Source: Candidatus Competibacteraceae bacterium
GTDB taxonomy: Bacteria; Pseudomonadota; Gammaproteobacteria; Competibacterales; Competibacteraceae
DNA: 64,000 nt
Direction of reading: 5' to 3'
NCBI GenBank assembly: GCA_027492875.1
Contig: JAPUDV010000057.1
Span: forward strand, 13,766 to 77,765
The notes beneath the pieces were generated by a model. The model searched no databases. It was not told where the DNA came from and saw nothing but the letters and a program-made list of their open reading frames with translations. How positions within the stretch are numbered: the stretch's first letter is position 1; each line of letters begins with the position of its first letter. Of the stretch, positions 12,605 through 58,894 are shown piece by piece. A program made the position numbers and the translations under genes.

Positions 12605-12676
12605 GCCTATCTCCTTAAGTGAGTAACCCCTGCAACGGGTTAGGTAGTAGTCAAGGACGCAAACCAGAGATGTAAA

Positions 12677-12690
12677 GTGGCGATCGCCAC
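12677..12690. promoter_or_regulatory. Perfect 14-bp palindrome GTGGCGATCGCCAC
   Basis: The palindrome, with core GGCGATCGCC, sits in the 107-bp gap between the NTF2-like gene and secreted-protein paralogue 2. It could be an operator for a dimeric regulator or an mRNA hairpin that protects the downstream message. The core also resembles the HIP1 repeat of cyanobacteria, which may be coincidence. Confidence 0.45.
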
Positions 12691-12711
12691 ACCGAAAAGT
12701 ATGGAAACGCA

Positions 12712-13170: not shown

Positions 13171-13178
13171 AGCCATCG

Positions 13179-35746: not shown

Positions 35747-38206
35747 CTAACAGAAACGTCGATACTGCCGGCCTAGCCAACGCACTGGCCGAGTAAGCCA
35801 CCAAGAATGAGAGGAATAAATTTCTTGCATTGCCCGCTCCAGATCCACAACCTGCTGCTGTAGCATACCAGAACGCCACCGCTGTTGCTCAATTTCCTGA
35901 CACTGCCCGGCAATATGTTGATTCAAATCAGCCAGTGCCCGCTCCTTGTCCGCTAACGCCCGCTCCTTGTCCGCTAACGCCCGCTCCTTGTCCGCTAATA
36001 AATCCGCTAGTGCCTTTTTCTTTGCCAAGAGACCATCTTGCCAAGCCTTGACATCCGCTTCAATCAATATTCTGTCACTAGGCCATTCAATTAGATTCTT
36101 GAGTATCTCTATCAATCGACTGCGTCCAAAATTATCGATTATCGAATCTGTTAATTCACAATAAATATACTCTATCTTAAATATCTCATCGAATACCAAA
36201 TAATTAAATACCCTAGTGAATACACAATTCTTAATGACCGACGTATACTGTTCCAAGTATGCATCACAAGCCATAGAACCAAAGAGAAACTCAGATTTTT
36301 CTACTGTATATCGTTTTCCATCTACAATATCAAGCAACAAGTCATTGACGGTTTTAGGTAGAGCATCCCATTCAATCAGGCGGGCACTTGGGTAACCACT
36401 CAATCGTTCGATAAAAGCGCCTAGCTTGGGTGCCACAATCGGCAATCCGGAATTCAACGCAGTACTTAAAGTATAGGAGTAAGTCTCTGGCCATTGCGCT
36501 GGAAAGTAGATAATATCTGCTTTTTCAGAAGCGATAAGTGCATGAAGATTGCAATCCAAATAAGGCCCACTGAACGTGAGCGGTAGGTCTAGTTCGCCAT
36601 CACCCAATACACCTATAGGTAGTTTTTCATAATAGGAAAAACCCAGTACCCTAAAAGAAAGCGGCAGATTTCTCTCTCTAGCATCTCTCGCGCACGACTC
36701 CAACTGTAATACTCCTTTCGCGAGAGACATCATTCCCAATACTAACACCTTAATTGTATGAAGCTCTGGGTGGGGAAGGTAAGTGAAGCTCGCCTCAGGA
36801 ATATACTTTCTAATGCGATTGATCGTATCCTGGGATGGACTGATTACCCGCTCCGCACCCACCAAGAGATTATGAAAATAGCTACGCCAAGCGATAATGT
36901 CGAGTTGCCATTGGGGAGGGCGTTCCTCCAGACATGTGTTACAACCACTCACGTCTGGTTCACCACAATAACGCCCATCAGGCAGTGTCAGGTTGAACTG
37001 TGGACAAATCGGGAAGTAATCATGTAGCGTATAATCGTAAGGCACTCGCAGTTTCTGTGGTAGCAAGGCTATTAAGGGATGGTGACCGATCAAATGATGA
37101 AAATGAACACGTATTATCGCCACTTGTTGGAGTAGTCTGACTAAATTTTCGAAAGTAACCGGTATCGCAAAATATAGTTTAAACTCTTCACCTCTTCTGG
37201 CCCATTCCAAAGTCACCTTATCCTCTGCATCCGGCCTCAGAATCAATATCTCAAATTGGGGTTCAAGCAAACGCACCAAATCCTGAACATGTTTTTCCGT
37301 GCCACCGCCAAGATGGTGGGTGACAAACAGCAAACAGGGTTTTCCAAACCGTATAAGCCGCGCCCAATCGACGCGCCTGCGTACCTGTCGTGCAGGATCA
37401 ATCGCTACATGGGACGCGATCAATTGATCGTAAAAAGGATAAAGAATCCGTAGCCGCTTCATGGCGTTTCGAGCTAAAAACTGATGCTCCGATCCAAAGG
37501 ATACCGCACCTTGGTGATAGACAAAGATATCGGCACAGAGCAGGTGTTTAAACCCAAGTTCGCTACCACGCAAACAAAAGTCATTTTCCTCGCCGTACCC
37601 GCGACCGAAACGCTGCACATCAAAGTAACCCACCTGCTCGATACAACGACGAGTGATATACATACAGAACCCAACCGCTGTAGGGATTTCCACATGACGT
37701 GCAGTATTTATCTCGGCAAATAATACATCCAATTCCGCTAGTTTATTTTCGGCGGGAAGAAACGAGTTGTTCTCGCAAAAACGCGGGTAGCTGCAAATAG
37801 TGGCATTGTTGGAAAACGGAGTCGCCGTGCCAATCATCGGATCGCTGCTCGCGTGGCGGCGCAAACGATCTAGCCAGTCGCCGTGTACCTCTGTATCACT
37901 GTTAAGCAGCACTACATCGCGGTCGGAATGCAACACAATGCCACGGTTGACAGCGTTGACGAAACCGGTATTGATCGGATTTTCCAACAGGGTGAAAGCG
38001 CCAGTTTCTGCCCGCTGCCACAGAAAAGCCGTTAGTTCCGGTTCCGGGCTGCAATCGTTAATGACTACAATCTCATAAGTGGTCTGCTGGGGAAACGCCA
38101 ATACGCTCTCCAGGCAGCGCCGGGTTTCATCTAACCCACGGTAAACCGGGATGATCACGTCGACCACGGGCGCACTGCCCGTAGCAGACTCAATATCGGT
38201 GGTCAC
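35747..38206 (-). CDS. GT2-GT4-coiled-coil fusion glycosyltransferase
   Basis: 819 residues from a GTG in a GTGA overlap with wzt. GT2 domain (about 12-265): DVIIPVYRGLDETRRCL, INDCSPEPE, VVLLNSDTEVHGDWL, GYGEENDFC. GT4-like domain (about 290-640): LLFVTHHLGGGTEKHV, then a Cys-rich insert (CGEPDVSGCNTC) and VISPSQDTI. A coiled coil (about 725-790) contains three exact heptads ADKERAL from a 21-bp tandem DNA repeat. The tail is SHSWWLTRPVRWLGR. It is the last gene of the FG-GAP-PpiC/TPR-GT41/wzm/wzt operon, so it probably helps to build or cap the exported glycan; the coil may set chain length, as in WbdD-type molecular rulers (inference). Confidence 0.88.
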   Translation of the reverse strand: MTTDIESATGSAPVVDVIIPVYRGLDETRRCLESVLAFPQQTTYEIVVINDCSPEPELTAFLWQRAETGAFTLLENPINTGFVNAVNRGIVLHSDRDVVLLNSDTEVHGDWLDRLRRHASSDPMIGTATPFSNNATICSYPRFCENNSFLPAENKLAELDVLFAEINTARHVEIPTAVGFCMYITRRCIEQVGYFDVQRFGRGYGEENDFCLRGSELGFKHLLCADIFVYHQGAVSFGSEHQFLARNAMKRLRILYPFYDQLIASHVAIDPARQVRRRVDWARLIRFGKPCLLFVTHHLGGGTEKHVQDLVRLLEPQFEILILRPDAEDKVTLEWARRGEEFKLYFAIPVTFENLVRLLQQVAIIRVHFHHLIGHHPLIALLPQKLRVPYDYTLHDYFPICPQFNLTLPDGRYCGEPDVSGCNTCLEERPPQWQLDIIAWRSYFHNLLVGAERVISPSQDTINRIRKYIPEASFTYLPHPELHTIKVLVLGMMSLAKGVLQLESCARDARERNLPLSFRVLGFSYYEKLPIGVLGDGELDLPLTFSGPYLDCNLHALIASEKADIIYFPAQWPETYSYTLSTALNSGLPIVAPKLGAFIERLSGYPSARLIEWDALPKTVNDLLLDIVDGKRYTVEKSEFLFGSMACDAYLEQYTSVIKNCVFTRVFNYLVFDEIFKIEYIYCELTDSIIDNFGRSRLIEILKNLIEWPSDRILIEADVKAWQDGLLAKKKALADLLADKERALADKERALADKERALADLNQHIAGQCQEIEQQRWRSGMLQQQVVDLERAMQEIYSSHSWWLTRPVRWLGRQYRRFC
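35937..35999. repeat. Three 21-bp tandem repeats within the coiled-coil region
   Basis: Three head-to-tail copies of a 21-bp unit beginning GCCCGCTCC (plus strand); the third differs at its last base. Each encodes one heptad of the coiled coil, so copy-number change alters coil length in frame. Confidence 0.9.
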
Positions 38207-39612
38207 GCAAACCGCTCCCGAACCGGTTCCGAGACATCATCGGGGGTAATGCACAATTCGATATCCAGCATCGGAATACCCATCAGCCCTTGATGAACGC
38301 TGCTGGTATGTGACTTAAAAATCAACATATCATTACACCAACAATGAATAATGTGCTCCTGCTGAGTACCGGAAGCCGCCGCGATATCCACAGCGTACTC
38401 TCCAACCGATAGCACCGGCATGTAGAAGGTAAAGCGCGCGATCAAGTGTTGACCAGCAACCATGCGCTGAGGATCGGCGGCATAAGTCAGATAGGTATTA
38501 TCTCCGAACAGATTTTGACCAAGCCGATCCTTAATAAAAAAACCGATAATCGGGCTGTCCAGATCGACCAGAACCCGCGCCTTTACAATTAGGGTAACCA
38601 GCTCACCACCAACGATCCAGTGCAGCGCATAGCCCTGCTCGTCTTCAAAATAAACGTCTTCGATCCGAATTGCCCTAGTGCCGTAACCCTCAACTTCGTG
38701 GCAAAACTCGAACAACTCCAGATCGTTGCGAAATCGGGTCTGGTTCAGAAACGCCAGCCGCTGGTCCACTCGCTCCACCCGAGCGCACGGATCACCCGCG
38801 ATGACAGGGGGTTGCCGTGATGGCATGACCGGGATGCCCATGTGCTGAGATTCGCGCAAGGTCGCCAGGTAGTGCTCGCAAACCTCCTTGGCCGGACCCG
38901 ACTCACGCATTTGACCGTGTTCCAGCCACAACACATGATCGCAGAGATTAACCACCGCTGCAGTATCGTGACTGACAAAAAACAGCGTGCCGTGCTCCTG
39001 AAACTTGCGGAGAAAGCGCATGCATTTCTGCACGAAAAACATGTCACCGACCGCCAACGCCTCGTCAATAACCAGGATATCGGCACGGACATGAGCGGCA
39101 ACGGCAAAGGCCAACCGTACCGCCATGCCGCTGGAATAGGTCTTAACCGGCTGATCGATAAATTCGCCAATATCGGCAAAAGCCAGAATCTCGGGCAGGT
39201 AGCGTTCGATTTCCGCGTCATTGAGGCCGAGAATCGCGGCGTTGAGATAAACATTCTCGCGACCGGTAAACTCTGGATTAAAACCGGTGCCCAGCTCCAG
39301 CAGCGCCGCCACCCGACCCCGCACTTCCAATACCCCCGTGGTCGGAGCCAGTGTACCGCAGAGCATTTTGAGCAAAGTCGATTTACCGGATCCGTTCCGA
39401 CCAATCACTCCGAACGTCTGACCGTGCTGAACCGTGAACGACACGTTCCGCAGGGCCCAGAATTCGCGGTAGTAGCAGCGTCGGCCACGCCATAACATCT
39501 GCTTCAAGCGATCCTGCGGCCGTTCGTAGATCTGATAGCATTTTCCCATCTCGCGCACTTCGATCACGGCTTGCTCGTCAGTCAATCGGTCGATGGCAGG
39601 TTCAGAGGACAT
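38203..39612 (-). CDS. wzt: ABC transporter ATPase for polysaccharide export, Wzt type
   Basis: 469 residues from ATG 39612, overlapping the wzm stop by 11 nt; longer readings run into wzm. Nucleotide-binding domain (about 20-260): Walker A GRNGSGKST, signature YSSGMAVRLAF, Walker B ILVIDEALAVGD, switch SHD. The C-terminal Wzt domain (about 300-455) is a beta-sandwich that in O9a/O8-type systems binds the modified non-reducing end of the glycan before export. With Wzm it moves undecaprenyl-linked polysaccharide across the inner membrane. A terminator-modification enzyme would be expected; the methyltransferase genes in this window are candidates (inference). Confidence 0.93.
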   Translation of the reverse strand: MSSEPAIDRLTDEQAVIEVREMGKCYQIYERPQDRLKQMLWRGRRCYYREFWALRNVSFTVQHGQTFGVIGRNGSGKSTLLKMLCGTLAPTTGVLEVRGRVAALLELGTGFNPEFTGRENVYLNAAILGLNDAEIERYLPEILAFADIGEFIDQPVKTYSSGMAVRLAFAVAAHVRADILVIDEALAVGDMFFVQKCMRFLRKFQEHGTLFFVSHDTAAVVNLCDHVLWLEHGQMRESGPAKEVCEHYLATLRESQHMGIPVMPSRQPPVIAGDPCARVERVDQRLAFLNQTRFRNDLELFEFCHEVEGYGTRAIRIEDVYFEDEQGYALHWIVGGELVTLIVKARVLVDLDSPIIGFFIKDRLGQNLFGDNTYLTYAADPQRMVAGQHLIARFTFYMPVLSVGEYAVDIAAASGTQQEHIIHCWCNDMLIFKSHTSSVHQGLMGIPMLDIELCITPDDVSEPVRERFA

Positions 39613-40519
39613 CGGCGAATCCCTTGCGCGTCCGAGCGAACCAATAGGCACCCAGCAGTGCCACCAACAATCCCATGCCCAGACACAATAGATAGTGTTC
39701 CCAAACCGGCGATTGGCCAAACAGAATAATTCCCCGAGTCTGCTCGATCACCAGCGCCAGTGGATTAAATTGGAACCAGTATCGGGCGGATGCCGGTAGG
39801 GCGCTGATCGGATAAAACACCGGACTCATAAACATCAGCAACTGCACCAACGGCACGATCAGCTGCTGGATATCACGGATGTACACCCCTAAAGCAGCCA
39901 AAAACCAGCTCAGCCCCAGCGCAAGCAACAACAGTGGCAGCATCATGACCGGCAATAGCAAAGCTGTCCAAGCCAAGCCATTACCCAAAACCTCTTGCAG
40001 CGATAGAATCACAAACAGTGTGACGGTTAGCGTCAATAGGGCGGAGGTAACCATCACCACTGGCAGCATCTCCAGTGGAAAAATAACATTTTTGACGTAA
40101 TTCTGGTGCGCCAAAATAAGGCCAGGGGCGCGACTGAGGCATTCCGCCAAAAAGTTGTAAAGGGCCATGCCGACGAACAGAATCAATGCCAATTCACTCA
40201 ACGAACTACTGCTATGATCACCCCAACGCATCTTAAAGATCACGCCGAAAAAGAAGGTAAACACCAGCAGTGACAATAGTGGCAGCAGTAGCGACCAGAA
40301 CAGTCCCAGATAGGAGCCCTGGTAACGCTCGGCAAAATCCCGCTTCAACAGTTTCAAAAACAATTGACGCTGCAACCAGGACTCATGGAGAACCCGGTAA
40401 AGTAGCCGATCCTGCCCAAGTCTAGGTTTTGAATTCGCCGGAGAAATCAAATTGAAAATCGACACGTCTTCAGCCAACTGCGAGTTAAGAACCACACGCC
40501 CGGAATCATGCGCTTCCAC
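39602..40519 (-). CDS. wzm: ABC-2 polysaccharide export permease, Wzm type
   Basis: 305 residues from a GTG that overlaps the end of the TPR-GT41 gene by 14 nt. A ~40-residue cytoplasmic N-terminus (KRDFAERYQGSYLGLFWSLL) leads into about six membrane helices typical of ABC-2 permeases, including FTFFFGVIF, LLVALLGAYWF and a conserved PVFYPISALP before the last helices. It forms the channel of the Wzm-Wzt transporter with the next gene. Translational coupling to an OGT-like gene upstream is unusual and notable. Confidence 0.92.
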   Translation of the reverse strand: MEAHDSGRVVLNSQLAEDVSIFNLISPANSKPRLGQDRLLYRVLHESWLQRQLFLKLLKRDFAERYQGSYLGLFWSLLLPLLSLLVFTFFFGVIFKMRWGDHSSSSLSELALILFVGMALYNFLAECLSRAPGLILAHQNYVKNVIFPLEMLPVVMVTSALLTLTVTLFVILSLQEVLGNGLAWTALLLPVMMLPLLLLALGLSWFLAALGVYIRDIQQLIVPLVQLLMFMSPVFYPISALPASARYWFQFNPLALVIEQTRGIILFGQSPVWEHYLLCLGMGLLVALLGAYWFARTRKGFADVL

Positions 40520-43457
40520 GATTCACGGCGGGCAACGCCGGTACATGCAGCGGAGCAGGCGACAGTCCTCGCACATGGCGGTCCCACATCAATTCATAGG
40601 CTCGTTCGAGATGCCGGACAAAGCGTTCGGTATCGAACAGCGGGGTTCGCAAGTGATTGTACGCCAGCTTGTCCCGCAGCAGCGTCAGATCCGCCGGTCG
40701 GGTCGCCAACCACACCGCCCGTTCCTCGTATTCTTCCAGTGAATGGGTGATCAGTTCCGGCATTTCCACCGCCTGCAACACGCTGGCGGCCACCCGCGCC
40801 TGGAAGGTCTCGCCCATGCAGGTCAGTACCGGTAATCCAGCCCACAGAGCATCGCTCGCCGTCGTGTGAGCACCATAAATACGCGTATCCAGGAATAGAT
40901 CAGCCAGCCGGTGGCGTTCGAGATGGCGATCTTTGGGCAAGCGCTTGGCAAACACCAGCCGCTCGCCAGTAACCCCGCAGGCAGCGGCGGTCGCCCGCAG
41001 ATTATCCTGGGCCTCTTGGTCCTCGGAGTACAGCCACAACACCGAGCCGGGCACGCGACGGAGGATGCACATCCAGACCGAGAACAGGACCGGATCGAGT
41101 TTCTGAATCTGGTTAAAACAGCAGAAAACGAAACTTTGTTCGGGCAAATCCTGGTCTACTCGCCGGATACCGGTCTCGGCGATCTCCTGCCAGCGGTCGT
41201 TGACTTGGTAGCATTCGGGCAGATAAACCGGATTTTCATTGAAATAGCACTGCGACTCTTCCGGCAGCACAATGGGATCGGCAATGATGTAGGGCATGAA
41301 GGGTGCACCCATGGTACCGGGATATCCCAGATAGCTGACTTGCACGGGAGCCGGTTGCAAGGCGAAGACTTCCGAGCGAGCGTAAGCCGTATAGCCCATC
41401 AAATCGATCAGAATATGAATGCCATCGACATGGATACGCCCCGCGATATCGGCATTGCTCGCACCTGCCAAGTCCACGAACCGATCTGCATCCGCCTTGA
41501 TACGCCGGTAATAATCACTCCCGTCATCGCCGCAGAGCGCGTAAATGCAAGTCTCAAAACGCTCCCGGTCGTGCAACCGGAACAGACCGCGCATCAGATG
41601 GGCGGTGGGATGGTTGCGAAAATCCGCCGATACGTAGCCGATCCTGAGTCGCTCGGCAGCCACCAGCGGATGGGAGAACGCCAGTTGCTGGCGCGCGGCC
41701 ATCATGCCCTCAGCCAGAAATTCGCCGCGGCTGCGGGCGATAGCTGCTGTCAGTTCGGGTGAAAGCGGCAAGAGTAATGACTTAAACGGTGGGATCGGGG
41801 TGGGTTGTCCCGCAGCGAGCATTTGCGTGATCAGATCCCGTGCCCGATCGACGGTCGCTTCATATTCCCGCCAGTCACCCCGATCCAAGCGCTTTAACTT
41901 AAAGGCCAGATATTCAGCACACGGCTCCGGATCGGACATCCGTGCATCCGGCGGCCTGCCATAAACCTCATGGCGTCCCCGAAAGGCCCGGAAAGCGTCC
42001 TTGTCCAGCTCGCGGGCCGTCGCAAAAGCTTGCCGCGCCTCTTCAAACCGCTCTAATCCCGCCAAGGCCCCCGCCTGATTGGCATAGATCTGCCAATCGC
42101 GCATGCCCCGCCCCAGTAATTCCCGCGCGGCCACCAGCGCTTCGGAAAAACGGTGCAAGCCGTTCAAGGCCGCGATCCGATTGATGGCGGCCTGGTTCTG
42201 ATGCGGTTCCAGCGCCAAGGCGCTCTCGACCGCAACCAAGGCCTCGGCGTAACGCTCGGCTGCCAGCAGAATGGCCGACTTGGCCGTCCAAAGCGAGGCA
42301 TTCGTCGGGTGCTCGGCGAGCGCCTGCTCGATCAAAGTCCGGCCAGCATCCCACTCGTTGCGACCGAACAGAATCTCTGTCTTAAGCGATACCGCCTCGG
42401 GCGGGTGAGGCGTGGTCGCCAGCACGGCATCCAGAGCAGATTCCGCCTCGGAAAAGCGCCGCAAACCCATCAGGGCTCTCGCCACGGCCAACTTCAGCAG
42501 CGGACGATCGGGGTATCGGGAGAGCGCCTTGTGCCCTTCCGCCAGCGCCTCCGCGAAGCGGCCCAAACCCAGCAGCGCCTGCGCCCTGATTTCCAGGGCA
42601 TCGGGATTGAAGGTATCGAAGGTCGATACGGTCAGCAAAGTCGCCAAGCAGGACTCGTAGTCCCGCAGTGCCAGCAAGGCAACGGCTTTATTGATCAAGC
42701 CCTTGATATGACGCGGCTTCAGCTGCAGCAAGCGATCCACGGCCGCCAGCGCTTCTCGAGGTTTGCGCAGACTCAACAATGCCGCAGTACGATTGAGCAG
42801 GGCAATGATCGCATCCGGCTGAATCCGCAAGGCGGCATCGGCCGCATGGATGGCTTCCTCGGGGCGATCCAGCGCAATCAACACCGAACTGCGGTTCATC
42901 AGCGCATTAGCATGATCGGGCGTAGAGACCAACAGCCGATCAAATACTTCCAACGCCGCCAGCGACTGCCCCATGCCATGCAGCGCCACTCCGCGATTCA
43001 ACTGTGCGGTGCTATTGGCTGGATCGTTCCGCAGAACCCGTTCCGTCAGCGGCAGGACTTCGGCGTAACGCTGCTGGCCAAGCAGCGCGCCCGCCTTACT
43101 GTTGAGTGCCTGAAAGTGATCCGGCGCGAGGGTCAGCGCGGCATCGGCCGCCTGGATAGCCTCCGCGTAGTGCCCCATCTGGCTTGCCGCCGCCGCCCCG
43201 ATCAGATACGGTTGCACTTGTCGTGAATTCAAGCTTAGAGCCTTGGCGACAGCCTGCCTGCATTCTGGAAAACGCCGCAGCCGCAGACAGCTCACCGCCA
43301 AACCGGACCATGCTCCAGCATCCTCGGGATTTTCCTGGCAGATCCGGGCGTAGAGTCCGTGCGCCTCTTCATGGCGGTGCTGGTCCAACAGCGCGCTCGC
43401 CTGATCGAGCGTAACCTGAATCTTGCTTTGTTTATCCATCATCACTCTTGATCGCAT
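40506..43457 (-). CDS. TPR-GT41 protein, OGT/SPINDLY-like glycosyltransferase
   Basis: 983 residues; ATG 43457, or the ATGATG pair at 43442. About fourteen TPR units span residues 10-520. The GT41 catalytic region (about 600-965) has LRIGYVSADFRNHPTAHLM (His of the OGT site), QVSYLGYPGTMG, FVFCCFNQIQKLDPVL (the UDP-binding Lys) and YGAHTTASDALWAGLPVLT. All landmark residues of the family are in place, so it should be active. Bacterial relatives glycosylate proteins in the cytoplasm; some have no known substrate. It starts 9 nt after the tripartite FG-GAP-PpiC gene and overlaps wzm, so it is in one operon with both. Protein glycosylation of the nearby secreted proteins is a testable inference. 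Confidence 0.9.
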   Translation of the reverse strand: MRSRVMMDKQSKIQVTLDQASALLDQHRHEEAHGLYARICQENPEDAGAWSGLAVSCLRLRRFPECRQAVAKALSLNSRQVQPYLIGAAAASQMGHYAEAIQAADAALTLAPDHFQALNSKAGALLGQQRYAEVLPLTERVLRNDPANSTAQLNRGVALHGMGQSLAALEVFDRLLVSTPDHANALMNRSSVLIALDRPEEAIHAADAALRIQPDAIIALLNRTAALLSLRKPREALAAVDRLLQLKPRHIKGLINKAVALLALRDYESCLATLLTVSTFDTFNPDALEIRAQALLGLGRFAEALAEGHKALSRYPDRPLLKLAVARALMGLRRFSEAESALDAVLATTPHPPEAVSLKTEILFGRNEWDAGRTLIEQALAEHPTNASLWTAKSAILLAAERYAEALVAVESALALEPHQNQAAINRIAALNGLHRFSEALVAARELLGRGMRDWQIYANQAGALAGLERFEEARQAFATARELDKDAFRAFRGRHEVYGRPPDARMSDPEPCAEYLAFKLKRLDRGDWREYEATVDRARDLITQMLAAGQPTPIPPFKSLLLPLSPELTAAIARSRGEFLAEGMMAARQQLAFSHPLVAAERLRIGYVSADFRNHPTAHLMRGLFRLHDRERFETCIYALCGDDGSDYYRRIKADADRFVDLAGASNADIAGRIHVDGIHILIDLMGYTAYARSEVFALQPAPVQVSYLGYPGTMGAPFMPYIIADPIVLPEESQCYFNENPVYLPECYQVNDRWQEIAETGIRRVDQDLPEQSFVFCCFNQIQKLDPVLFSVWMCILRRVPGSVLWLYSEDQEAQDNLRATAAACGVTGERLVFAKRLPKDRHLERHRLADLFLDTRIYGAHTTASDALWAGLPVLTCMGETFQARVAASVLQAVEMPELITHSLEEYEERAVWLATRPADLTLLRDKLAYNHLRTPLFDTERFVRHLERAYELMWDRHVRGLSPAPLHVPALPAVNRGSA

Positions 43458-43466: not shown

Positions 43467-45863
43467 TCAAGAATTTTTTTCTTCCTGAGTGTGAGGCTTA
43501 GGGGTTTGGTGGTACCACTCGCCATCAATCAAAACCCATTCCTCGGTGAGAGTCTGCTGGGTCCATCCGAATGCCCCAACCTCGATTTTACCCTGGAGCT
43601 TGACCGAGGCCCGCTCACCCTCCACCGTCGTTTCCAGAATCTGGACCTCGCGAACCGGCAGTCCGCCGAGTTGCCGGTACTGATCGGGCGTCAGCCAGCC
43701 ACCGGGTCGGGCCGCCGCCTCTAGGCTGTACACGGTCTGGAAGTCATTGACTGAACGGGCGGTCCAGTAACGCTGGACTCTATGCTCCAGCGATTCGCCC
43801 ACTTGAACCTGAGCCGGATTCGCCCGTTCCAGCTTTTTCTCATCAACGACGACCCCAAATTCATGGGCCAATGTTTTTAGATAGCGATCCCGCGCCTGGC
43901 GTTGCTGTTCCGCCTGCCATTGCGCCGCGACCTTGACGCGCATCGTCTCAAAAGCGGCGATCAAAGGCGCCCGCCAGTCAGTCATCAACAATAGTTCATA
44001 ACCCACTGGCGACTGCACGATGCCGGTACGCTGGCCGGGTTGCAGACCGCGCACGGCATCCCGCAACCAGGGCTCGGCGTTGCGGGCGACAAAACCCCGC
44101 TCTGGCCCAGTATCGCGGGCGCGCGGGTTTTCGGTCAATTCCGCTGCGACCTTGCTAAAACCTTCCCCGGTTTCGAGCCGCCGCATGGCCTGTTCGGCGC
44201 GTTGCCGAGCCGTAGGGCCTCCCGTCTGATCGCGGTCGTTGCGGAACTGGATTTGTACCAGTCGAACCAGTTCGGGGATACCGAACTGCTCCCGGTTCGC
44301 ATCGTAATACGCGCGCAGCACGGTCTCGTCCGGCGGTGGCGGCACCGGAAAATATCGATCCCCCAGCAACCGCAAGCCGGTAGCGTATTCTTCCTGCGAC
44401 ATCGCTTTTGAAGGCAGATTTTCTCGCTCGACCGCTTTCTTGAGCAATTCCTCCTCGATCATGAGCCGTAAAACCCGGATTTGACCCGCCTGGGTTTGCA
44501 GTTCCTGACCCAATCCACTTTGCAAGCCGAAATCTTGCAGATCTTTAATCGTGATCGCATGATCGCCCACGCGAGCCAAAACATGGGCAGGATCAACCGT
44601 CAGCGCAATATTACGCTTGATGGCCGAAACCGGATCTGTACGATCATCCTCTCGTTCTACCGTCTGACTAGGCGCAACCTCGGCGGCGGATTTCGGATTC
44701 CTCAAATTGGTCGCTGCCTGCCAGAGCGGTCCATATAAAATCCGCAGCGAATCCTCAGTCTTGTTCAACACGACGATCAAGTCGGATTCCCCGTCACCGT
44801 CTACATCCTGAAGCATCAATTGGTTGACGCTGCTACCCAGCGGTATCTCGACCGTTTCATATCGGTAGGGATTGCCGGTCTCGATTCGGAACAACACCAG
44901 CGACTGCTCGGTGTCGGTCGCCAGCAACCAGCTTCCATCCTTGATCTTGGCTATCGCCAACAAGGCAGGCCCCCAAGCTTGACCGGGAACCAGCAGTTCT
45001 GGCCCCGGCGTGAAATGGCCCTTGCCATCGTTTAAAAGCACCGCGATCCGGCGTTCCGATTCCAAAGGCAGCAGAATATCGAGCGCCCCATCGCCATTCA
45101 AATCCGCTACCACCACATGACGGGGCGCACCGACCGGCGCCGTCCAGATCGCCACTGGTTCAGGGGGCTGGCCGTCCTTGGGATAATCGACCCGCCACAA
45201 GGTCCGCGAACGCCGGGTGGTATAGAGCAACTCAACAATGCCATCGCCATCGATATCTGCGGCGGTCACCGCACCAGGGACGCTGTGCTGCGGCACACCC
45301 AAGGTGTATTCCGCATCCACCTGTGCGGAGTCGGCCTGAAAATTTCTTAGCAACATCCAAGCAGGCCCTTGATAGGGCATCACAGCCAGTGCCGTACCCC
45401 AATTCGGCCAGGAGAACGCCGTGGTCGTAAACGATCCGTCGCCCTGAGGACGGTTCGCGATCTCTCGCAATCCTCTCTCGCCGTCCGGCGCCAACACTTT
45501 CAACTGTTCTTCGCCTTCGGCGTTCAGTAGATAGCGATGCGCGTTCCCAGGTAGACGAGTCAACTCGTTGGCATGAAACCCCAGCACCTTTGCGGCGGGC
45601 CCGGCTTCGAACTGGCGCGGCGCCTTCTGGTAAAGCACCTGTGCTGTTTCCGCGCCGCGATCAGTCACAATCAAGTCGCTACGGCCATCCTCATCCACAT
45701 CGTCCACCACCACGGCGAACGCCCCCCCGGTGAAGGGCAAGAGCTGAAGTATTGGTGATGGCATCGCCGGTTCCATCGCTCGTGGCGACTGGACCACCAG
45801 CAACAACCCTCCAACCAACATTAGGGAACACGAGGATCGCACAAAACCGGGGGTTTTTCGCAT
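43467..45863 (-). CDS. Secreted FG-GAP/VCBS + PpiC prolyl isomerase + NTF2-like fusion protein
   Basis: 798 residues from ATG 45863 (GAGAG 7 nt upstream), giving a signal peptide (LMLVGGLLLVVQSPRA) that a longer reading would bury. Four DxDxDG-type FG-GAP/VCBS motifs follow (VDEDGRSD near 54, IDGDGIVE near 200, LNGDGALD near 252, VDGDGESD near 351), indicating a calcium-binding beta-propeller-like domain. A SurA/PpiC region follows, with its parvulin core at about 531-624 (LVRLVQIQFRN, VGYELLLMTDW). An NTF2-like domain ends the protein (about 694-790; TPDQYRQ, EEWVLIDGEWYHQ). The same isomerase and NTF2-like parts occur as separate genes at 7,632 and 12,712. It is probably a periplasmic foldase for the neighbouring secreted protein. 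Confidence 0.87.
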   Translation of the reverse strand: MRKTPGFVRSSCSLMLVGGLLLVVQSPRAMEPAMPSPILQLLPFTGGAFAVVVDDVDEDGRSDLIVTDRGAETAQVLYQKAPRQFEAGPAAKVLGFHANELTRLPGNAHRYLLNAEGEEQLKVLAPDGERGLREIANRPQGDGSFTTTAFSWPNWGTALAVMPYQGPAWMLLRNFQADSAQVDAEYTLGVPQHSVPGAVTAADIDGDGIVELLYTTRRSRTLWRVDYPKDGQPPEPVAIWTAPVGAPRHVVVADLNGDGALDILLPLESERRIAVLLNDGKGHFTPGPELLVPGQAWGPALLAIAKIKDGSWLLATDTEQSLVLFRIETGNPYRYETVEIPLGSSVNQLMLQDVDGDGESDLIVVLNKTEDSLRILYGPLWQAATNLRNPKSAAEVAPSQTVEREDDRTDPVSAIKRNIALTVDPAHVLARVGDHAITIKDLQDFGLQSGLGQELQTQAGQIRVLRLMIEEELLKKAVERENLPSKAMSQEEYATGLRLLGDRYFPVPPPPDETVLRAYYDANREQFGIPELVRLVQIQFRNDRDQTGGPTARQRAEQAMRRLETGEGFSKVAAELTENPRARDTGPERGFVARNAEPWLRDAVRGLQPGQRTGIVQSPVGYELLLMTDWRAPLIAAFETMRVKVAAQWQAEQQRQARDRYLKTLAHEFGVVVDEKKLERANPAQVQVGESLEHRVQRYWTARSVNDFQTVYSLEAAARPGGWLTPDQYRQLGGLPVREVQILETTVEGERASVKLQGKIEVGAFGWTQQTLTEEWVLIDGEWYHQTPKPHTQEEKNS

Positions 45864-45925: not shown

Positions 45926-45961
45926 TCAAAAAGAAACGGCGCCTTTCGCAAGGCACCGTTT
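45926..45961 (-). terminator. Rho-independent terminator after the third secreted-protein gene
   Basis: Minus strand: AAACGGTGCCTT pairs with AAGGCGCCGTTT (one G-T wobble) around GCGA, followed by CTTTTTGAGGG. It lies between the secreted-protein gene and the FG-GAP-PpiC gene, matching the layout at 8,725-8,753. Confidence 0.88.
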
Positions 45962-45994: not shown

Positions 45995-47185
45995 TTAGAA
46001 CTCCGCACCCTCGGTCGCCATTTCGGTTTGGAGCTGTGCGGCATTGCTACCCGCGCCCAAGCCGAGCATATTGAAGACCACGCCCGAGGAAGTCCACTCG
46101 ATGGTGCTCTTGTACTCAGGCACACCGAAGCGGATGATGCCGGTATTCACGACCGTGTCGCCTGTATAAACTTCTTTCTCCGAATGAATCATGCCCGGAA
46201 ACGCCGGGACCGCCGGCGTGCTGACTATGACATTCAATTCGTTCGGCAGCGTCACCGAGAACGACCGCTTGTAGACCTGCTCGCTATCGTAGGTTTCACC
46301 AGACGAGCTGCGCGTCGCGTTGGTGTTGAACCAGAACACCATTTCGTTCTTGGTCGCCAACGCCGGATCCAGGAAGTAGCGAAGGTAGATGTCGCGCACA
46401 AAGTTGGAGTAGGGATTGGTGAAATCGATACCACTGATCAGACGGTCGGTGTGCGGATAACCGTCACTTCCCTTGGTCACGTTCAACCACTGAGTGCTCG
46501 GCCCCTGAGGTTCCCGACAATCGCCGCCGGGCACCGCAACCGGGGAATTGTAGGTGCAAACCGGGTTGGACAACACGGGAATAAACGCCTGGGAAGCCCA
46601 GTCGCCGACGATTTGATAGGCATGACCGTAGAGCGCGAACTTGGGCATGCCGACGACGTACGGGAGGTTACCGAGCTGCTCGGAATCGAAGGTATTGTCG
46701 ACGAACAGCATGTAGCCTTCCACGCCGTCCAGCGCCTTCTGGGTGTTTGGATCGCCGGTTACGATGTTACACCAGTCGACCCGCACAAAGTCGTTGTCGG
46801 TGACCGGAATAACGCCATCCAGCACATGCTGGCTCTTGTTGTTATAGAAATACCAATGCACCAAACCCTTACTACCGCCACCAGGCGAGGTGACCCGCGC
46901 GGGTAAGGTCGGCACCGATTGACCTATAACATTCGCCAAAACAGCCGGCGCGGGCTGATAGTAGCCTTTACTATTAACCAAGCCGATCCGGCTTTTCCAG
47001 AACGTGATCAGGCCGATCAAGGTATTTTGGCGACCCCCGGGGACCGCAGTGTTGCAAACCACGCGCGGCACCAGCAGAAAATCGCCAGGAGTCGACAGTT
47101 GCACTGTCGCATAACTGGCGGATGAAGCCAGCAGGGCACCGGCGACTGCCGCAGCGGCACCAACCTTTTTAAATTCACGCACCAT
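45995..47185 (-). CDS. Secreted protein 3 (unknown family)
   Basis: 396 residues from ATG 47185, fixed by AAGGAG 7 nt upstream. The signal peptide (FKKVGAAAAVAGALLASSA) is cut after SYA. The mature start, VQLSTPGDFLLVPRVVCNT, recalls the GDVVIFPYYTARC start of the two paralogues at 8.7-12.6 kb, and GVEGYMLFVDNT recalls their YEGYIVAIVEG; a distant relation is possible but not certain. It has five or more cysteines and many Asn/Ser/Thr residues. No enzymatic motif or anchor is visible. Two promoter-like sites, a strong ribosome site and a strong terminator suggest a highly expressed single-gene message. It sits between the tripartite foldase gene and gspD, so it is a candidate T2SS substrate. 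Confidence 0.8.
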   Translation of the reverse strand: MVREFKKVGAAAAVAGALLASSASYATVQLSTPGDFLLVPRVVCNTAVPGGRQNTLIGLITFWKSRIGLVNSKGYYQPAPAVLANVIGQSVPTLPARVTSPGGGSKGLVHWYFYNNKSQHVLDGVIPVTDNDFVRVDWCNIVTGDPNTQKALDGVEGYMLFVDNTFDSEQLGNLPYVVGMPKFALYGHAYQIVGDWASQAFIPVLSNPVCTYNSPVAVPGGDCREPQGPSTQWLNVTKGSDGYPHTDRLISGIDFTNPYSNFVRDIYLRYFLDPALATKNEMVFWFNTNATRSSSGETYDSEQVYKRSFSVTLPNELNVIVSTPAVPAFPGMIHSEKEVYTGDTVVNTGIIRFGVPEYKSTIEWTSSGVVFNMLGLGAGSNAAQLQTEMATEGAEF

Positions 47186-47251
47186 TTTGAGGCTCCTTAA
47201 CAAGTAGCAAGGGAGAAGCATCATTCAAGAGAAGTCTCAACGACAGAGTAA

Positions 47252-47351: not shown

Positions 47352-47380
47352 ACTATAAGTGTAGCGCACGGCCCTGTCAA
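47352..47380 (-). promoter_or_regulatory. Near-consensus sigma-70 promoter, distal, for secreted protein 3
   Basis: TTGACA (47375-47380), 17-bp spacer, TATAGT (47352-47357) on the minus strand. It lies exactly 100 bp upstream of the proximal site, and both follow the word GGTTGAC. Several TTGTTGT(T) words surround it. The 279-bp interval to gspD holds these signals and no gene. Confidence 0.65.
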
Positions 47381-47464: not shown

Positions 47465-49777
47465 TCAGCCTGCGGGTTGCTGGATCAAGGGCGCAACCTC
47501 CTGCATCTTGCGCTTGATCTCCTCGGTCACCTGATCGGCGTCCTGGCTATTCTCGACCACTCGTGGGGTGATCAACACGATCAGCTCGGTACGGTCTACC
47601 TGTTCTTCGGTGTTGCCGAACAGCGCGCCCAACACCGGAATTTTGTACAGTATCGGAAAGCCGCTCTGTCCTTCGGAACGGTTGTCGCGGATCAACCCCC
47701 CCAGCACCAGCGTCTGTCCGCTCTTGACCACCACCTTGCTGGTCACGCTACGCTGCAAAAATGAGCGCGACGAGATAGATTGGCTGCTGCTCTGGGTGGT
47801 TTCCACCAACGGCCCCAAGTCGATCACTTCCTGCTTGATTTCCATGTTCACCATGCCGCCCGAATTGACCCGGGGCAATACCTCCAACAATACACCGGTA
47901 TCTTTATATTCTACCCCACCCGAGGTGGTCACGTTATTCGTGGTGGTCGTGCCGGATGGAATCGGTTGCTGGGTACCCACCCGGATCACCGCCTGCTGGT
48001 TGTCCACCACCATCACATGGGGCGATGACAGCACCTTGACCTTGGAATCGCTGGCCAAGGTATTCAGCAGAGCACGCACTAGCCCGGCGCTATCGGTGAT
48101 CGCATAGGAAAAAGCGCCGGCTGACCGACCCGCAAGCACATCGTTGACGGTAAGGTTGTCCGCGTTGATCCCGAGCGAACCCGTGCCTGTATGACTACTG
48201 CCCACGTCATTGGTAAAAAACCATTGCAGGCCGTACTGTAACTTGCCGGTCAGGGTCACCTCGGCGATGGTGGCCTCGATCAGGACCTGACGGGGCGTGA
48301 CATCCAGCTTTTGTAGTGTGTTAATGATCCGCTCGTAATTCTGATTGGTGGCCCAGATCAACAGCGAATTATTTTCGGTATCGGCGACGATACGAACTTC
48401 TTCCATGCCCGCGCTGGGCCCGCCGGATCCGATGGCGCTGCCTCCAGCCCCAGTCCCTGCCGTACCACCGGAGCGTCCACCCGCGCGATTGCCAACTGAT
48501 GGCGTGGCCCCCCCCAGCCCGGATGTCCCTACACCCGAGGCACCCGAAGCACCAAGCCCGGAGGAGGACGAACCGGACAGCGTCGACTTGCCGCTTCCCC
48601 CGCCCAAACCAGAACTCGAACCGCCTGCCAAGCCCGATCCGCTGGACAGTTGCGCCGATTTCAGACCTGGCGCCAGTTCGCCCCCCCGGCTTGCGCCCCC
48701 ACCACTACCAAGGTTGAATAGGCCATTGAGCAATTCGGCTACGTAGTCAGCCCGGCTGTTCTGCACTTGATAGACATACAGCCGTTCGCCACCGATGCCA
48801 TCCAGCCGCTCGATCCAGATGGCCGCTTCCTTGAGGTATTCCAACTGCGGCGTGATCACCAGCACCGCATTCAGCTTGCTAAGCGGCACGAATTTAAGCA
48901 TCCCCGCAATCGGCGTTCCGGAACCTTCGCCCAAAAATTGATTCAATTCTCCGGCCAAGGCCTGACTGTCCACATTGCGCAGCCGAAACATACCGATCGA
49001 CATACCCTTGAGCCAATTCACATCGAAAGTATCGATGGTGCTTTGCGCGTTGGCCAACTCTTGTGGGGTACCAGCCAAAATCAGCAGGTTACGAATTGGA
49101 TCCGCCCGGAGAATGCCCCCTTCGGGCAGAAATGGCGTAATGATCGTTTGCATCTCGGTGGCACTCACATAGCGCAAGGGCACGATCCTTACACCATAAC
49201 CCGAGCCACCCTGCCCCGAGCGTGGAGTCAAAATCCCTTTCTGCACGGCGCCCGCAGCCGGAATGATCCGGTACACCCCGCCTTCGCGAACCAGAACCGC
49301 GTTGTTGGCCCGCAGCAATGTCTCCAGCGTCGGCAACAACTGATCCCGTGCGAGCGGTCGGCCGGTTTGCACGGTCACCTCGCCCTGCACTTGCGGGTCG
49401 ATCGTATAGTTTTCCTTGAGGGTGTCGAAAACCACCTTGATCACATCGCGGATATCGGCCCCTTCGAAATTGAGAGTAACTTCGCCGGCTGCGGTGCGCG
49501 TCACGGAGGTCGGCTTGGCGGCGATCTTCCCGTCGATGAAGTTGCCCGTGCCCGGCAGGATCATCGTGGTTCTGGGAGACGGTGCGGTGCCGGACTGGCC
49601 GATGTCGGCCGATCGAGGGGGGGATAGCGGCGCCGAGGTGATCCGGGGTGCTTCACCGGTAGCGGGGGCGGCGGGCATCCCCGTATCCTGAACGTTCTGG
49701 TCGGCAGGTACCGTCGTGCACGCACCGAGCAGCAACACCAGCAACGCGCCGGCTGGTGTAAAAAAAGCCTTTTTCAT
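47465..49777 (-). CDS. gspD: Type II secretion outer-membrane secretin GspD
   Basis: 770 residues from ATG 49777. The N-terminus ends in the lipobox LLGAC, so this secretin is probably a lipoprotein that inserts without a separate pilotin. N0-N3 domains follow: VTLNFEGADIRDVIKVVFDT, VRIVPLRYVSATEMQTIITP. The secretin C-domain has VLSSPHVMVVDNQQAVIRVG, VLEVLPRVNSGGMVNMEI and LVLGGLIRDN. Residues about 355-457 form a Gly/Ser-rich linker, much longer than usual, inside the periplasmic domains. It forms the outer-membrane channel through which folded proteins leave. It is the last gene of the T2SS operon, 13 bp after the XpsN-type gene. Confidence 0.95.
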   Translation of the reverse strand: MKKAFFTPAGALLVLLLGACTTVPADQNVQDTGMPAAPATGEAPRITSAPLSPPRSADIGQSGTAPSPRTTMILPGTGNFIDGKIAAKPTSVTRTAAGEVTLNFEGADIRDVIKVVFDTLKENYTIDPQVQGEVTVQTGRPLARDQLLPTLETLLRANNAVLVREGGVYRIIPAAGAVQKGILTPRSGQGGSGYGVRIVPLRYVSATEMQTIITPFLPEGGILRADPIRNLLILAGTPQELANAQSTIDTFDVNWLKGMSIGMFRLRNVDSQALAGELNQFLGEGSGTPIAGMLKFVPLSKLNAVLVITPQLEYLKEAAIWIERLDGIGGERLYVYQVQNSRADYVAELLNGLFNLGSGGGASRGGELAPGLKSAQLSSGSGLAGGSSSGLGGGSGKSTLSGSSSSGLGASGASGVGTSGLGGATPSVGNRAGGRSGGTAGTGAGGSAIGSGGPSAGMEEVRIVADTENNSLLIWATNQNYERIINTLQKLDVTPRQVLIEATIAEVTLTGKLQYGLQWFFTNDVGSSHTGTGSLGINADNLTVNDVLAGRSAGAFSYAITDSAGLVRALLNTLASDSKVKVLSSPHVMVVDNQQAVIRVGTQQPIPSGTTTTNNVTTSGGVEYKDTGVLLEVLPRVNSGGMVNMEIKQEVIDLGPLVETTQSSSQSISSRSFLQRSVTSKVVVKSGQTLVLGGLIRDNRSEGQSGFPILYKIPVLGALFGNTEEQVDRTELIVLITPRVVENSQDADQVTEEIKRKMQEVAPLIQQPAG

Positions 49778-49790
49778 GAAAATATAGCCT

Positions 49791-50423
49791 TTATCCATCA
49801 GGTTGTGGCGGCGTGGGAACAACCGACGGCGGAAGCGCGTCGGGCTTTGGCGTAACCACGGGCTGACTGACCGGTTGTACATCCCGGCCACGCCTCGCGC
49901 CAGCCCGTTGGGCGTGCGGCCCAAGCGATTTTTGCGGGCGCACCAACGGCAATTCCTGGGTCGATTGGCCCTTACGCAGCACGACTCGGTCGGGGAAAAT
50001 CGCTTCCAGTAGCCACTCGCCTACTTTTTCTCCCAAGCCAATCCGTACCGTTTTGGCATTGGGCTCCTCGGGTCGCAATAAAGCCTTCTTTGCGCTGGAC
50101 GTGATCATCACCCCCAGCAACGTCAGTTTCTGTTCCGTCTTCGGGGGAGCAGGCGGTCTTTCTGGTGGCGCTTCATCAGGAGGCGGAGGAGGTTCCGGTT
50201 GGCGGGTGGAAATAAACAGCGGATGCAGAACGATCTCGCCATACCGATCCAGCGGCGGTAGTTGAAACGGCCGCATTGGTTCCACTGCCGGCAGTTCGAG
50301 GATGCGGTTGGCACCGACTGCCGCCGGAGGGCGCGGCGGGTGCGCCAGTTGCCAGTACGCGGCAACGGCGGCAACCCCTCCAACCAGCAGCCACAACAAC
50401 AGTCCGGCGCTTCTGGCCATCAT
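49791..50423 (-). CDS. Type II secretion inner-membrane protein, GspC/XpsN type
   Basis: 210 residues; its ATG directly follows the gspM stop. One N-terminal membrane helix (about 5-22), a Pro-rich linker (PPPPPDEAPPERPPAPPK) and a homology-region-like domain (about 95-165: LTLLGVMITSSAKKALL, GEWLLEAIFPDRVVL). A basic, Pro-rich tail follows. Position between gspM and gspD and this layout match XpsN of Xanthomonas, the functional equivalent of GspC that links the inner-membrane platform to the secretin. No separate gspC was seen in the window. Confidence 0.85.
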   Translation of the reverse strand: MMARSAGLLLWLLVGGVAAVAAYWQLAHPPRPPAAVGANRILELPAVEPMRPFQLPPLDRYGEIVLHPLFISTRQPEPPPPPDEAPPERPPAPPKTEQKLTLLGVMITSSAKKALLRPEEPNAKTVRIGLGEKVGEWLLEAIFPDRVVLRKGQSTQELPLVRPQKSLGPHAQRAGARRGRDVQPVSQPVVTPKPDALPPSVVPTPPQPDG

Positions 50424-51023
50424 TTAACCGCCTTCCTTGCGCAGGTATCCCGAGACTTCAAATTGAACGGTCAACTGCACCCGGCTATAGCTCGCTAACC
50501 GACCGTTGGGCAGGCGCTGGCGAATTTCCCGCACCGATACGTCCAAATTATCGACGAACAGCAATGGCGTCTGCGATTCAAGGTCGTACAGAATTTTCTG
50601 CAAGCTCTCGGTATCTCCACTCACGGTCGCGTTAACACCCACCTTCATGGCGTTCCCTTCCTCGACTGGTGGCAACGCCTGGGTACTGTGCAGGGTACCG
50701 CCAGCCGCTTCGACGGCGGCCTTGACGCGCTGCTGTAAACCGGCGGCGGCCAGCGGAGGCGCGGATTGCGGCAGGTACTGGGCGCTTATATTGCGGTCCT
50801 GTTGGATGCTGGCGATCACCTGCTGGATCGGTTCGCGGCTAGCAGCCATCCGTTCGAGTTGCCCCAATCGGCCCTGCTGCTGTTCCAGACGCTCTTGATA
50901 GAAACGGTAGCGGGCAATCAGTATCTGGTCCACCAGCAGGTAGAAGGCGCCAGCCATAACCAGCAATAGCAGCGCTAGCGCACCCAGACGCTGCCCCCAA
51001 CCCGGCGAGGTTGCGGCAGTCAT
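50424..51023 (-). CDS. gspM: Type II secretion protein GspM
   Basis: 199 residues from the ATG overlapping the gspL stop (ATGA). One membrane helix (about 13-33, LGALALLLLVMAGAFYLLV), then a coiled coil and a ferredoxin-like periplasmic domain (QQRVKAAVEAAGGTLHSTQ, PLLFVDNLDVSVRE). It resembles the XpsM subtype. It binds GspL and the XpsN-type protein in the inner-membrane platform. Confidence 0.9.
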   Translation of the reverse strand: MTAATSPGWGQRLGALALLLLVMAGAFYLLVDQILIARYRFYQERLEQQQGRLGQLERMAASREPIQQVIASIQQDRNISAQYLPQSAPPLAAAGLQQRVKAAVEAAGGTLHSTQALPPVEEGNAMKVGVNATVSGDTESLQKILYDLESQTPLLFVDNLDVSVREIRQRLPNGRLASYSRVQLTVQFEVSGYLRKEGG

Positions 51024-52150
51024 CGCGGTTCCCTACCAATATGCGCACCCAGCAAGAAACGTTCCTTGCCAGTCCTCGGATCCGTGGTGACCGGCGACAG
51101 AAATCCAGCGCCGTCCAGCAAATCCGAGGCCTCGATAATGCCGACCAACGCCGATGCCCTAGCGGACTGACCGCTGATTTGCAAGCTATCCCCCTTGATC
51201 TGCAACCGTTCCACCCAAGTGTCCGGCGGCAGAATCAGGGTCAATTCCCGCAGCAGATCCACCCGGGGTGGAGCCGCTTTTTTCTTTTCCGCCAGCATGT
51301 TGGACGTTTGCAAGGTCCGATCTAATTGGTTCCGCAGGGCCAGCGACTGATCCGCCGCCGCCCGGAGCCGGTCGCTCCTGGCGTTCGCATCGAGCAACAG
51401 CGCACGCTGCTGCCAGATCGGCAGCAGCGATGCCACCACGACCAGCAGCAGGCTAGCGACGATCACCATCGCCCGCAACCGCTGCCCCCAAAGACCGCGG
51501 CGCACCCGCTGCTCCGGCGGCAACAGATTGAGATCGGAACCAGCCCCGGCCACGTCCAGCACATCCGGCGATAACCCTTGCTGCCGCAACTGGAACAGCA
51601 CTGGATCCACCGCAACCCGCGGCAACGCGGTCAACTCAACCCGCAGACGACGCTGTTCGGGCTGACGCTGCAACACGCGGGCATGGTAATACACCTGATC
51701 GGCGACAAACGGCGTCAGGCGATCCATCTCAAATCCCGCCACCTGGCGCAAGTTCTTCTCTGCGGCTAAAGGCAACGGCAGGGTCCGCACCAGCGCCTGG
51801 CCGGCTGGAAAGCGCAGCACCAATTGTCTGGCTTTTTCCGTTCTGAACCATCTCGCCACAACCTGATAATCAGGCGACGTGCGGTCCAACCTCTCCAATT
51901 CCTGGTCCTGGCCGGCTTCCTCGCGCAACAGCACGCACTCGCCTTCATCCACCGCGATGACCAGCCGCCGCGACGAACCGATCAGCCAGCGACGGATGCC
52001 GGCGGGCAACCAGGCCAGCAGGCCATCCCGCCACCAGCGCCAGACCGCATTCCAGATCCAGCGGGGATTGACTGTCAAAGCCTGCAAACGTGATGAACCC
52101 AGCGACAAAGCCATGCGCGAGCGCCGATCCTCCGGTCTAAGGGGCTGCAT
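51020..52150 (-). CDS. gspL: Type II secretion protein GspL
   Basis: About 376 residues from ATG 52150; no clear ribosome site, and ATG 52114 is an alternative. The actin-like cytoplasmic domain is reduced: a basic N-terminus, then VIAVDEGECVLLRE and FEMDRLTPFVADQVYYHARV, as in the PilM/XpsL-type form. The membrane helix is at about 235-255 (VIVASLLLVVVASLLPIW), followed by a coiled coil and a periplasmic PilN-like domain (PPDTWVERLQIKGDSLQISG). It recruits the GspE ATPase to the membrane. Confidence 0.88.
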   Translation of the reverse strand: MQPLRPEDRRSRMALSLGSSRLQALTVNPRWIWNAVWRWWRDGLLAWLPAGIRRWLIGSSRRLVIAVDEGECVLLREEAGQDQELERLDRTSPDYQVVARWFRTEKARQLVLRFPAGQALVRTLPLPLAAEKNLRQVAGFEMDRLTPFVADQVYYHARVLQRQPEQRRLRVELTALPRVAVDPVLFQLRQQGLSPDVLDVAGAGSDLNLLPPEQRVRRGLWGQRLRAMVIVASLLLVVVASLLPIWQQRALLLDANARSDRLRAAADQSLALRNQLDRTLQTSNMLAEKKKAAPPRVDLLRELTLILPPDTWVERLQIKGDSLQISGQSARASALVGIIEASDLLDGAGFLSPVTTDPRTGKERFLLGAHIGREPR

Positions 52151-52184
52151 ACAATACAACTTTATGATTCATACTGAGATATCT

Positions 52185-54590: not shown

Positions 54591-54613
54591 ATCATCGTCG
54601 CGCTTGGATCTGC

Positions 54614-55048: not shown

Positions 55049-55078
55049 CGAATCAGATATCCAAGGGATCAACCGGGT

Positions 55079-56299: not shown

Positions 56300-56301
56300 G
56301 G

Positions 56302-58891: not shown

Positions 58892-58894
58892 GGC

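What the first reader, a model, noticed from the sequence alone, without database searches (positions are those of the whole stretch)
43467..45863. Unusual tripartite FG-GAP + PpiC + NTF2-like protein
Four DxDxDG calcium-type motifs, a parvulin isomerase and an NTF2-like domain in one exported chain is an architecture I do not know as described. The propeller-like part could grip a client while the isomerase folds it.
Basis: partly seen in the sequence, partly recalled or inferred. Interest (0 to 1): 0.65.

Follow-up and report, generated by a model that had tools for sequence, protein, structure and literature searches.

The report
Fused helper for surface-protein secretion
Three exported helper proteins that relatives make from three neighbouring genes are fused into one chain here, beside a secretion machine and a likely coat protein, so the chain is most likely a dedicated chaperone for building the cell's outer protein coat.

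Summary
The gene (798 aa, 43467-45863, minus strand) is real: signal peptide, integrin-like FG-GAP propeller, parvulin domain, small NTF2-like domain. The architecture arose by stepwise gene fusion: in 12 of 18 Competibacteraceae loci the three parts are separate adjacent genes, in three the propeller and parvulin are fused, and only this genome and one Ca. Contendobacter have all three fused. The locus is rml genes, complete T2SS, exported protein X409, helper(s), TPR-GT41 glycosyltransferase, Wzm/Wzt. Apart from the helpers and the GT41 this is the gene order of the Aeromonas S-layer cluster (rml, sps T2SS, vapA, wzm, wzt), with X409 in the VapA position. A terminator-like hairpin follows X409 in 17 of 17 loci. 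X409, helpers and most of the GT41 gene are exchanged between genomes as a block. Five genomes lacking the block carry, behind the same gspD, a GT41, another exported protein and a BNR-propeller/NTF2-like protein. Neither catalytic parvulin histidine is present in any of 19 relatives, so "isomerase" is probably wrong. Best reading: a dedicated periplasmic chaperone for a T2SS-secreted, S-layer-like protein. Function is inferred from genomics; the NTF2 fold is probable, not shown.

The parts
43467..45863 (-). Fusion protein, 798 aa: signal peptide ~1-30, FG-GAP propeller ~37-386, linker, parvulin region ~426-685, NTF2-like ~690-790
45995..47224 (-). X409, exported protein without family match, proposed client and S-layer-like subunit
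45934..45961 (-). Terminator-like hairpin (12 pairs, T tract) between X409 and the fusion gene; equivalent in 17 of 17 loci
47352..47380 (-). Promoter-like site TTGACA-17-TATAGT upstream of X409
40506..43457 (-). TPR plus GT41 (O-GlcNAc-transferase-like) glycosyltransferase; N-terminal ~600 aa swapped with the cassette
39602..40519 (-). Wzm-type ABC-2 permease
38203..39720 (-). Wzt ATPase with Wzt_C domain
47465..49924 (-). GspD secretin
49791..58008 (-). T2SS genes gspC (XpsN-like), M, L, K, J, I, H, G, F, E
   Evidence: L named by position and a weak PilM hit
57989..60336 (-). rmlD, rmlC, rmlA
7632..8681 (-). Parallel module: separate exported parvulin with both catalytic histidines
8763..12733 (-). 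Parallel module: two large exported proteins (605 and 656 aa ORFs) of one family
12712..13176 (-). Parallel module: separate NTF2-like protein related to the C-terminal domain of the fusion

Best explanation
The protein is a dedicated periplasmic chaperone or assembly factor for X409, a proposed S-layer-like protein secreted by the neighbouring T2SS and tethered by the Wzm/Wzt-exported O-polysaccharide. It arose by fusing three adjacent genes for exported proteins, first propeller to parvulin, then parvulin to NTF2-like. Proposed working: X409 crosses the inner membrane by Sec; the propeller and NTF2-like domains hold it while the catalytically degenerate parvulin region binds it as a SurA- or PpiD-like chaperone module; it is then handed to GspC/GspD. 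Shown: domains, synteny, fusion order, missing catalytic histidines, block exchange, conserved hairpin after X409. Inferred: that X409 is the client, that it forms a surface layer, and every binding step.
For: X, propeller, parvulin, NTF2-like and GT41 keep one order in the family loci, as far as contigs reach. Of 18 family loci: 2 triple fusions, 3 double, 12 separate, 1 truncated; the fused ones form one clade, support 0.997. Separate forms examined (4 parvulin, 4 NTF2-like) carry their own hydrophobic leader; the fusion lacks inner ones. Gene order as in the Aeromonas AH-1 S-layer cluster (PMC4413209, passages). Another GspD above cut-off lies elsewhere in this genome, so this T2SS can be dedicated. 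X, helpers and GT41 co-vary, partial r 0.80-0.98, 0 of 2000 permutations for each of 10 pairs, 12 loci. In a class sample, X and NTF2-like relatives occur in the same 4 of 274 genomes. Hairpin after X in 17 of 17 loci, 25 of 3400 shuffles, 1 of 17 control junctions. Propeller plus NTF2-like recurs with another propeller family in 5 of 5 readable alternative loci.
Against: No experiment. X409 has no family hit and its model is uninformative (pLDDT 33.6), so 'S-layer' rests on gene position; homology to VapA was not tested. In G174 (another family) X, propeller, parvulin, NTF2-like and Wzm/Wzt have no GspD nearby (one lies elsewhere), so the T2SS link is not universal. In G101 the parts lie in separate places and X genes lack the hairpin (0 of 5 tested). 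G016 lacks Wzm/Wzt beside the cassette. Codon bias does not single out X409 (Nc 46.2; window genes 33.7-57.2). 11 of 11 other tested family genomes lack the cassette by choice of test set, and 5 of those 11 also lack a close GspD orthologue.
Confidence: 0.6

Rival explanations
1. The fusion protein is itself a T2SS cargo: a calcium-dependent surface adhesin or tip protein, like PilY1 on type IV pili, with X409 a partner on the surface.
For: Calcium-type propellers are often surface or adhesive proteins; PilY1's propeller site controls pilus function (PMC3123361, passages). The gene follows a T2SS and has a signal peptide.
Against: Parvulin and NTF2-like parts, and separate exported parvulin/NTF2-like proteins beside the S605-type proteins, point to folding helpers. 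The hairpin places X, not the helper, as the most transcribed gene.
Confidence: 0.17
2. The set serves the O-polysaccharide or glycoprotein side: the propeller binds glycan, and the protein links glycosylated X409 to O-antigen or checks glycans before export.
For: GT41, Wzm and Wzt_C neighbours; integrin-like propeller of a fungal lectin binds sugars (reference title in PMC3123361); the GT41 N-terminal part moves with X and helpers.
Against: X409 relatives show no sequon enrichment (17 tested); no sugar-binding site was identified; Wzm/Wzt do not move with the cassette.
Confidence: 0.15
3. A general periplasmic folding factor of the SurA/PrsA kind that happens to lie here.
For: Parvulin region matches PrsA and SurA in profile search (1e-13, 1e-12).
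Against: Patchy occurrence (18 of 39 family genomes), strict synteny and co-variation with X, missing active-site histidines.
Confidence: 0.08

Closest known systems
Aeromonas hydrophila AH-1 S-layer cluster (rml, spsE-D T2SS, vapA, wzm, wzt)
   Same: Order of rml genes, T2SS E to D, exported protein, Wzm, Wzt (PMC4413209, passages)
   Different: No FG-GAP, parvulin, NTF2-like or GT41 gene is named in the passages I read; X409 not shown to be related to VapA
SurA, PrsA and PpiD parvulin-type chaperones
   Same: Parvulin region matches in profile search; the PpiD parvulin domain is also devoid of PPIase activity while PpiD is a chaperone (PMC2956729, passages)
   Different: Propeller and NTF2-like domains; both active-site histidines replaced
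HMW1A/HMW1B/HMW1C
   Same: GT41 enzyme encoded with an exported surface protein and its secretion apparatus (PMC3983070, passages)
   Different: T2SS instead of two-partner secretion, TPR-type GT41, no sequon enrichment, extra exported helpers
Integrin-type calcium propellers, including PilY1
   Same: DxDxDG motifs in a propeller; fold match Z 20.6
   Different: Joined to parvulin and NTF2-like domains; 1 to 4 strict motifs among 16 relatives

Membership tests
FG-GAP / integrin-type propeller | FG-GAP repeats above cut-off and propeller fold | tested here: met
   PF13517 73 bits, cut-off 26.9; Z 20.6, residues 37-383
Parvulin (PpiC) domain | Rotamase profile above cut-off | tested here: met
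   (PF13145 39.1 bits, cut-off 27)
Active parvulin PPIase | Two conserved active-site histidines (recalled from the family) | tested here: not met
   Q and E here; 0 of 19 X-type relatives have either His; 7 of 7 S605-type have both
NTF2-like superfamily | Cone fold, or profile match above cut-off | tested here: inconclusive
   no match above cut-off, no PDB sequence match, weak hits of relatives; domain not modelled alone
Aeromonas-type S-layer secretion locus | Order rml - T2SS - exported protein - wzm - wzt | tested here: met
   against PMC4413209; two extra genes lie between exported protein and wzm
Aeromonas-type S-layer secretion locus | Exported protein forms a crystalline surface array | not testable with these tools
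   needs microscopy and proteomics
Aeromonas-type S-layer secretion locus | Exported protein homologous to VapA | not tested
   no VapA sequence was fetched
Type II secretion system | Core genes C to M | tested here: met
   D, E, G, M above curated cut-offs; F 411.5 of 424; C, H, I, J, K below-cut-off hits to T2SS models; L only a weak PilM hit

The most novel reading that the evidence does not exclude
An exchangeable coat cassette at a T2SS locus: coat protein, its own chaperone (propeller + inactive parvulin + NTF2-like, split or fused; or BNR propeller + NTF2-like) and the protein-binding part of its GT41 glycosyltransferase move together between genomes, so a cell swaps its surface layer with matched folding and glycosylation helpers. 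The propeller would be a lectin-like reader of the glycosylated client: a bacterial counterpart of lectin-plus-prolyl-isomerase glycoprotein chaperoning.
Probability: 0.18. Interest if true: 0.85.

Novelty: new variant of a known kind. Interest (0 to 1): 0.6.

Why it matters
It gives a testable function to a protein architecture that I found in no paper of the held library (and the other searches listed), through the fusion logic: three proteins that are separate elsewhere are joined, so they most likely work together. It suggests that dedicated T2SS surface-layer loci, described in Aeromonas, also exist in the uncultured Competibacteraceae, a family known (recalled) from phosphorus-removing sludge granules where surface proteins shape aggregation, with client-specific chaperones. 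The block exchange of coat protein, chaperone and glycosyltransferase parts would be a new level of modularity in bacterial surface variation.

Tried and rejected
The fold of parvulin and NTF2-like parts was therefore not tested by structure; Foldseek and VIA lists were filled by propellers, so absence of NTF2 folds there means nothing.

PDB sequence search with the NTF2-like profiles A3 and A9: no hit at E 10. DUF4864 as a bridge: only 1 of 59 genomes hit, not used.

N-glycosylation sequons in X409 relatives: no excess in 17, so HMW1C-like N-glycosylation was not adopted. High expression of X409 from codon bias: not shown.

One ancestral family for X409, the alternative protein Y and the S605-type proteins: profile comparisons gave 91% (X-Y), 79.5% (X-S) and 95.4% (Y-S) probability, but signal peptides were included in the aligned part and the X-S and Y-S matches cover only the N-terminal ~60-85 columns, so I do not claim it.

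Literature: searches found no description of this architecture or of a Competibacteraceae T2SS surface locus; no architecture database (InterPro, CDART) was at hand, so 'undescribed' is limited to those searches.

First gene-identity matrix lost most GspD rows through a length filter and gave no correlations; it was redone with the GspD C-terminal part, using the 12 loci that hold all eight genes. iqtree2 gave no output; FastTree was used.

Full report
OBSERVATION. The ORF on the minus strand ends at 43467; the ATG at 45863 gives 798 aa. Pfam finds FG-GAP repeats and a PpiC-type parvulin domain above cut-off and nothing over the last ~110 residues. Four DxDxDG motifs are present. The AlphaFold model is poor overall, but residues 37-383 match integrin-alpha propellers with Z 20.6; Foldseek's own list is likewise of propellers.

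ORIGIN OF THE ARCHITECTURE. A search of 96 relatives and the loci around the hits show the propeller part in 18 of 39 genomes of the family (own genome included). In 12 loci the propeller, parvulin and NTF2-like parts are three adjacent genes in that order; in three (G005, G019, G028) the first two are fused; in two (this genome and G024, which is Ca. Contendobacter JARSSP010000044.1, 72% identity) all three are; in one (G035) the contig ends inside the first. A tree of the three parts puts all five fused loci in one clade (support 0.997), with the two triple fusions together (0.88). The family is Candidatus Competibacteraceae by the title of the G024 record and NCBI taxonomy. The separate parvulin and NTF2-like proteins I examined (4 and 4) have hydrophobic leaders of their own, which the fusion lacks, so all three parts are exported proteins.

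NEIGHBOURHOOD. Upstream and downstream order in the window: rmlA, rmlC, rmlD, gspE, F, G, H, I, J, K, L, M, C, D, X409, fusion, TPR-GT41, Wzm, Wzt. X409 lies directly upstream of the propeller gene in 17 of the 18 loci including the window; the exception, G020, ends there. gspD precedes X409 in all 16 loci whose contigs reach it. The GT41 gene follows in 17 of 17 that reach it; Wzm/Wzt follow in 15 of 16, G016 being the exception (my count). Passages of PMC4413209 list the S-layer cluster of Aeromonas hydrophila AH-1 as RmlD, RmlA, RmlC, SpsE to SpsM, Orf2, SpsD, VapA, Wzm, Wzt: the same plan, with X409 in the place of VapA. Passages of PMC3658858 say that Aeromonas S-layer subunits are secreted by T2SS-like components and that LPS may link the layer to the cell. 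This genome holds another GspD above cut-off on a different contig.

EXPRESSION SIGNALS. A hairpin of at least 8 pairs with a T tract lies just after X409 in 17 of 17 loci, against 25 of 3400 dinucleotide shuffles and 1 of 17 other gene junctions. A TTGACA box with at least 9 of 12 consensus matches precedes X in 15 of 17 (no shuffle control there, and in the window such sites are not rarer in shuffles by much: 4 found, mean 2.1). The same kind of hairpin follows 5 of 5 Y genes and 7 of 9 S605-type genes, but only 1 of 6 X genes outside the family. This is what one expects of a subunit made in excess of its helper.

PARVULIN WITHOUT ITS HISTIDINES. At the two positions where parvulins have histidine, 18 of 19 X-type relatives have Q and E, and G101 has R and F; 7 of 7 parvulins beside S605-type proteins have both histidines (alignment to SurA and PrsA). 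PpiD is a precedent for a chaperone with an inactive parvulin domain (PMC2956729, passages). So I read this region as a binding module.

BLOCK EXCHANGE. Between this genome and its congeners G001 and G003 the gspD end is 89-93% identical in DNA; identity falls to 59-63% just after it, stays at 45-63% through X409, the fusion and most of the GT41 gene, and returns to 74-82% in the GT41 3' part and Wzm. Against G024 it stays at 62-81% throughout. In the flank tree this genome groups with G001 and G003 (1.000), in the helper tree with G024. G008 and G027 are sisters by flanks (0.999) but carry different helper types, so exchange has happened more than once. Among 12 loci, pairwise identities of X, propeller, parvulin, NTF2-like and GT41 correlate at 0.82-0.98 with each other and 0.11-0.53 with GspD, Wzm and Wzt; partial correlations are 0.80-0.98. 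In the GT41 protein the first ~600 residues (TPR region and start of the catalytic part) are the swapped part.

ALTERNATIVE CONTENT OF THE LOCUS. Of 11 family genomes without the cassette that I tested, 6 have a close GspD orthologue. In the five of these with sequence behind it (the sixth contig ends there), gspD is followed by a GT41 gene, another exported protein (Y), an exported 584-617 aa protein and Wzm/Wzt, with an unrelated extra ORF in G030. That large protein has BNR/Asp-box repeats (sialidase-type propeller; four of the five scanned) and a C-terminal domain related to the NTF2-like domain (four found by HMM; profile comparison 97.5%). A propeller joined to this domain has thus been assembled twice from different propeller families at the same locus.

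PARALLEL SYSTEM. At 7632-13176 the window has a separate parvulin, two large exported proteins (S605, S656) and a separate NTF2-like protein related to the fusion's C-terminus (E 4.3e-4; profile 96.5%). The trio recurs in G001, G024, G026, G030, G054 and G064. So exported protein plus parvulin plus NTF2-like helper is a wider theme.

OCCURRENCE. In 274 genomes drawn from the class, X relatives were found in 4 and NTF2-like relatives in the same 4: this genome, G008, and two from other families, G101 and G174. In G174 X, propeller, parvulin, NTF2-like, Wzm and Wzt are neighbours without a T2SS; in G101 the parts are spread over several places.

CONCLUSION. The tripartite chain is a fused set of exported helpers dedicated to one exported protein at a T2SS/O-antigen locus. 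The most economical function is chaperoning or assembly of an S-layer-like protein. That step, and the roles of the single domains, are inference. The novelty lies in the helper architecture, its assembly by fusion, and the exchange of client, helper and glycosyltransferase part as a block.

Noticed in passing
window 7632-13176: Second helper module: separate parvulin with intact histidines, two large exported proteins of one unnamed family, separate NTF2-like protein; recurs in six other genomes.
   Followed up: partly
window 56302-58008: GspE matches the MshE-related cyclic-di-GMP-binding domain model at its N-terminus (NF053729, 39.5 bits, cut-off 38), so this T2SS may be controlled by c-di-GMP.
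   Followed up: no
window 13472-17116: 1214-aa protein whose sequence reads as GT2 plus TPR plus a GT41-like C-terminus, next to the second module; not scanned for domains.
   Followed up: no
window 47465-49924: GspD carries a long Gly/Ser-rich insert before the secretin core, visible in the translation.
   Followed up: no
L101-L104, L106: Exported BNR/Asp-box propeller proteins with a C-terminal NTF2-like domain at the same T2SS locus, beside an unnamed exported protein.
   Followed up: partly
L073 6815-12063: Three S605-type genes in tandem in G028, suggesting recent duplication of this exported-protein family.
   Followed up: no
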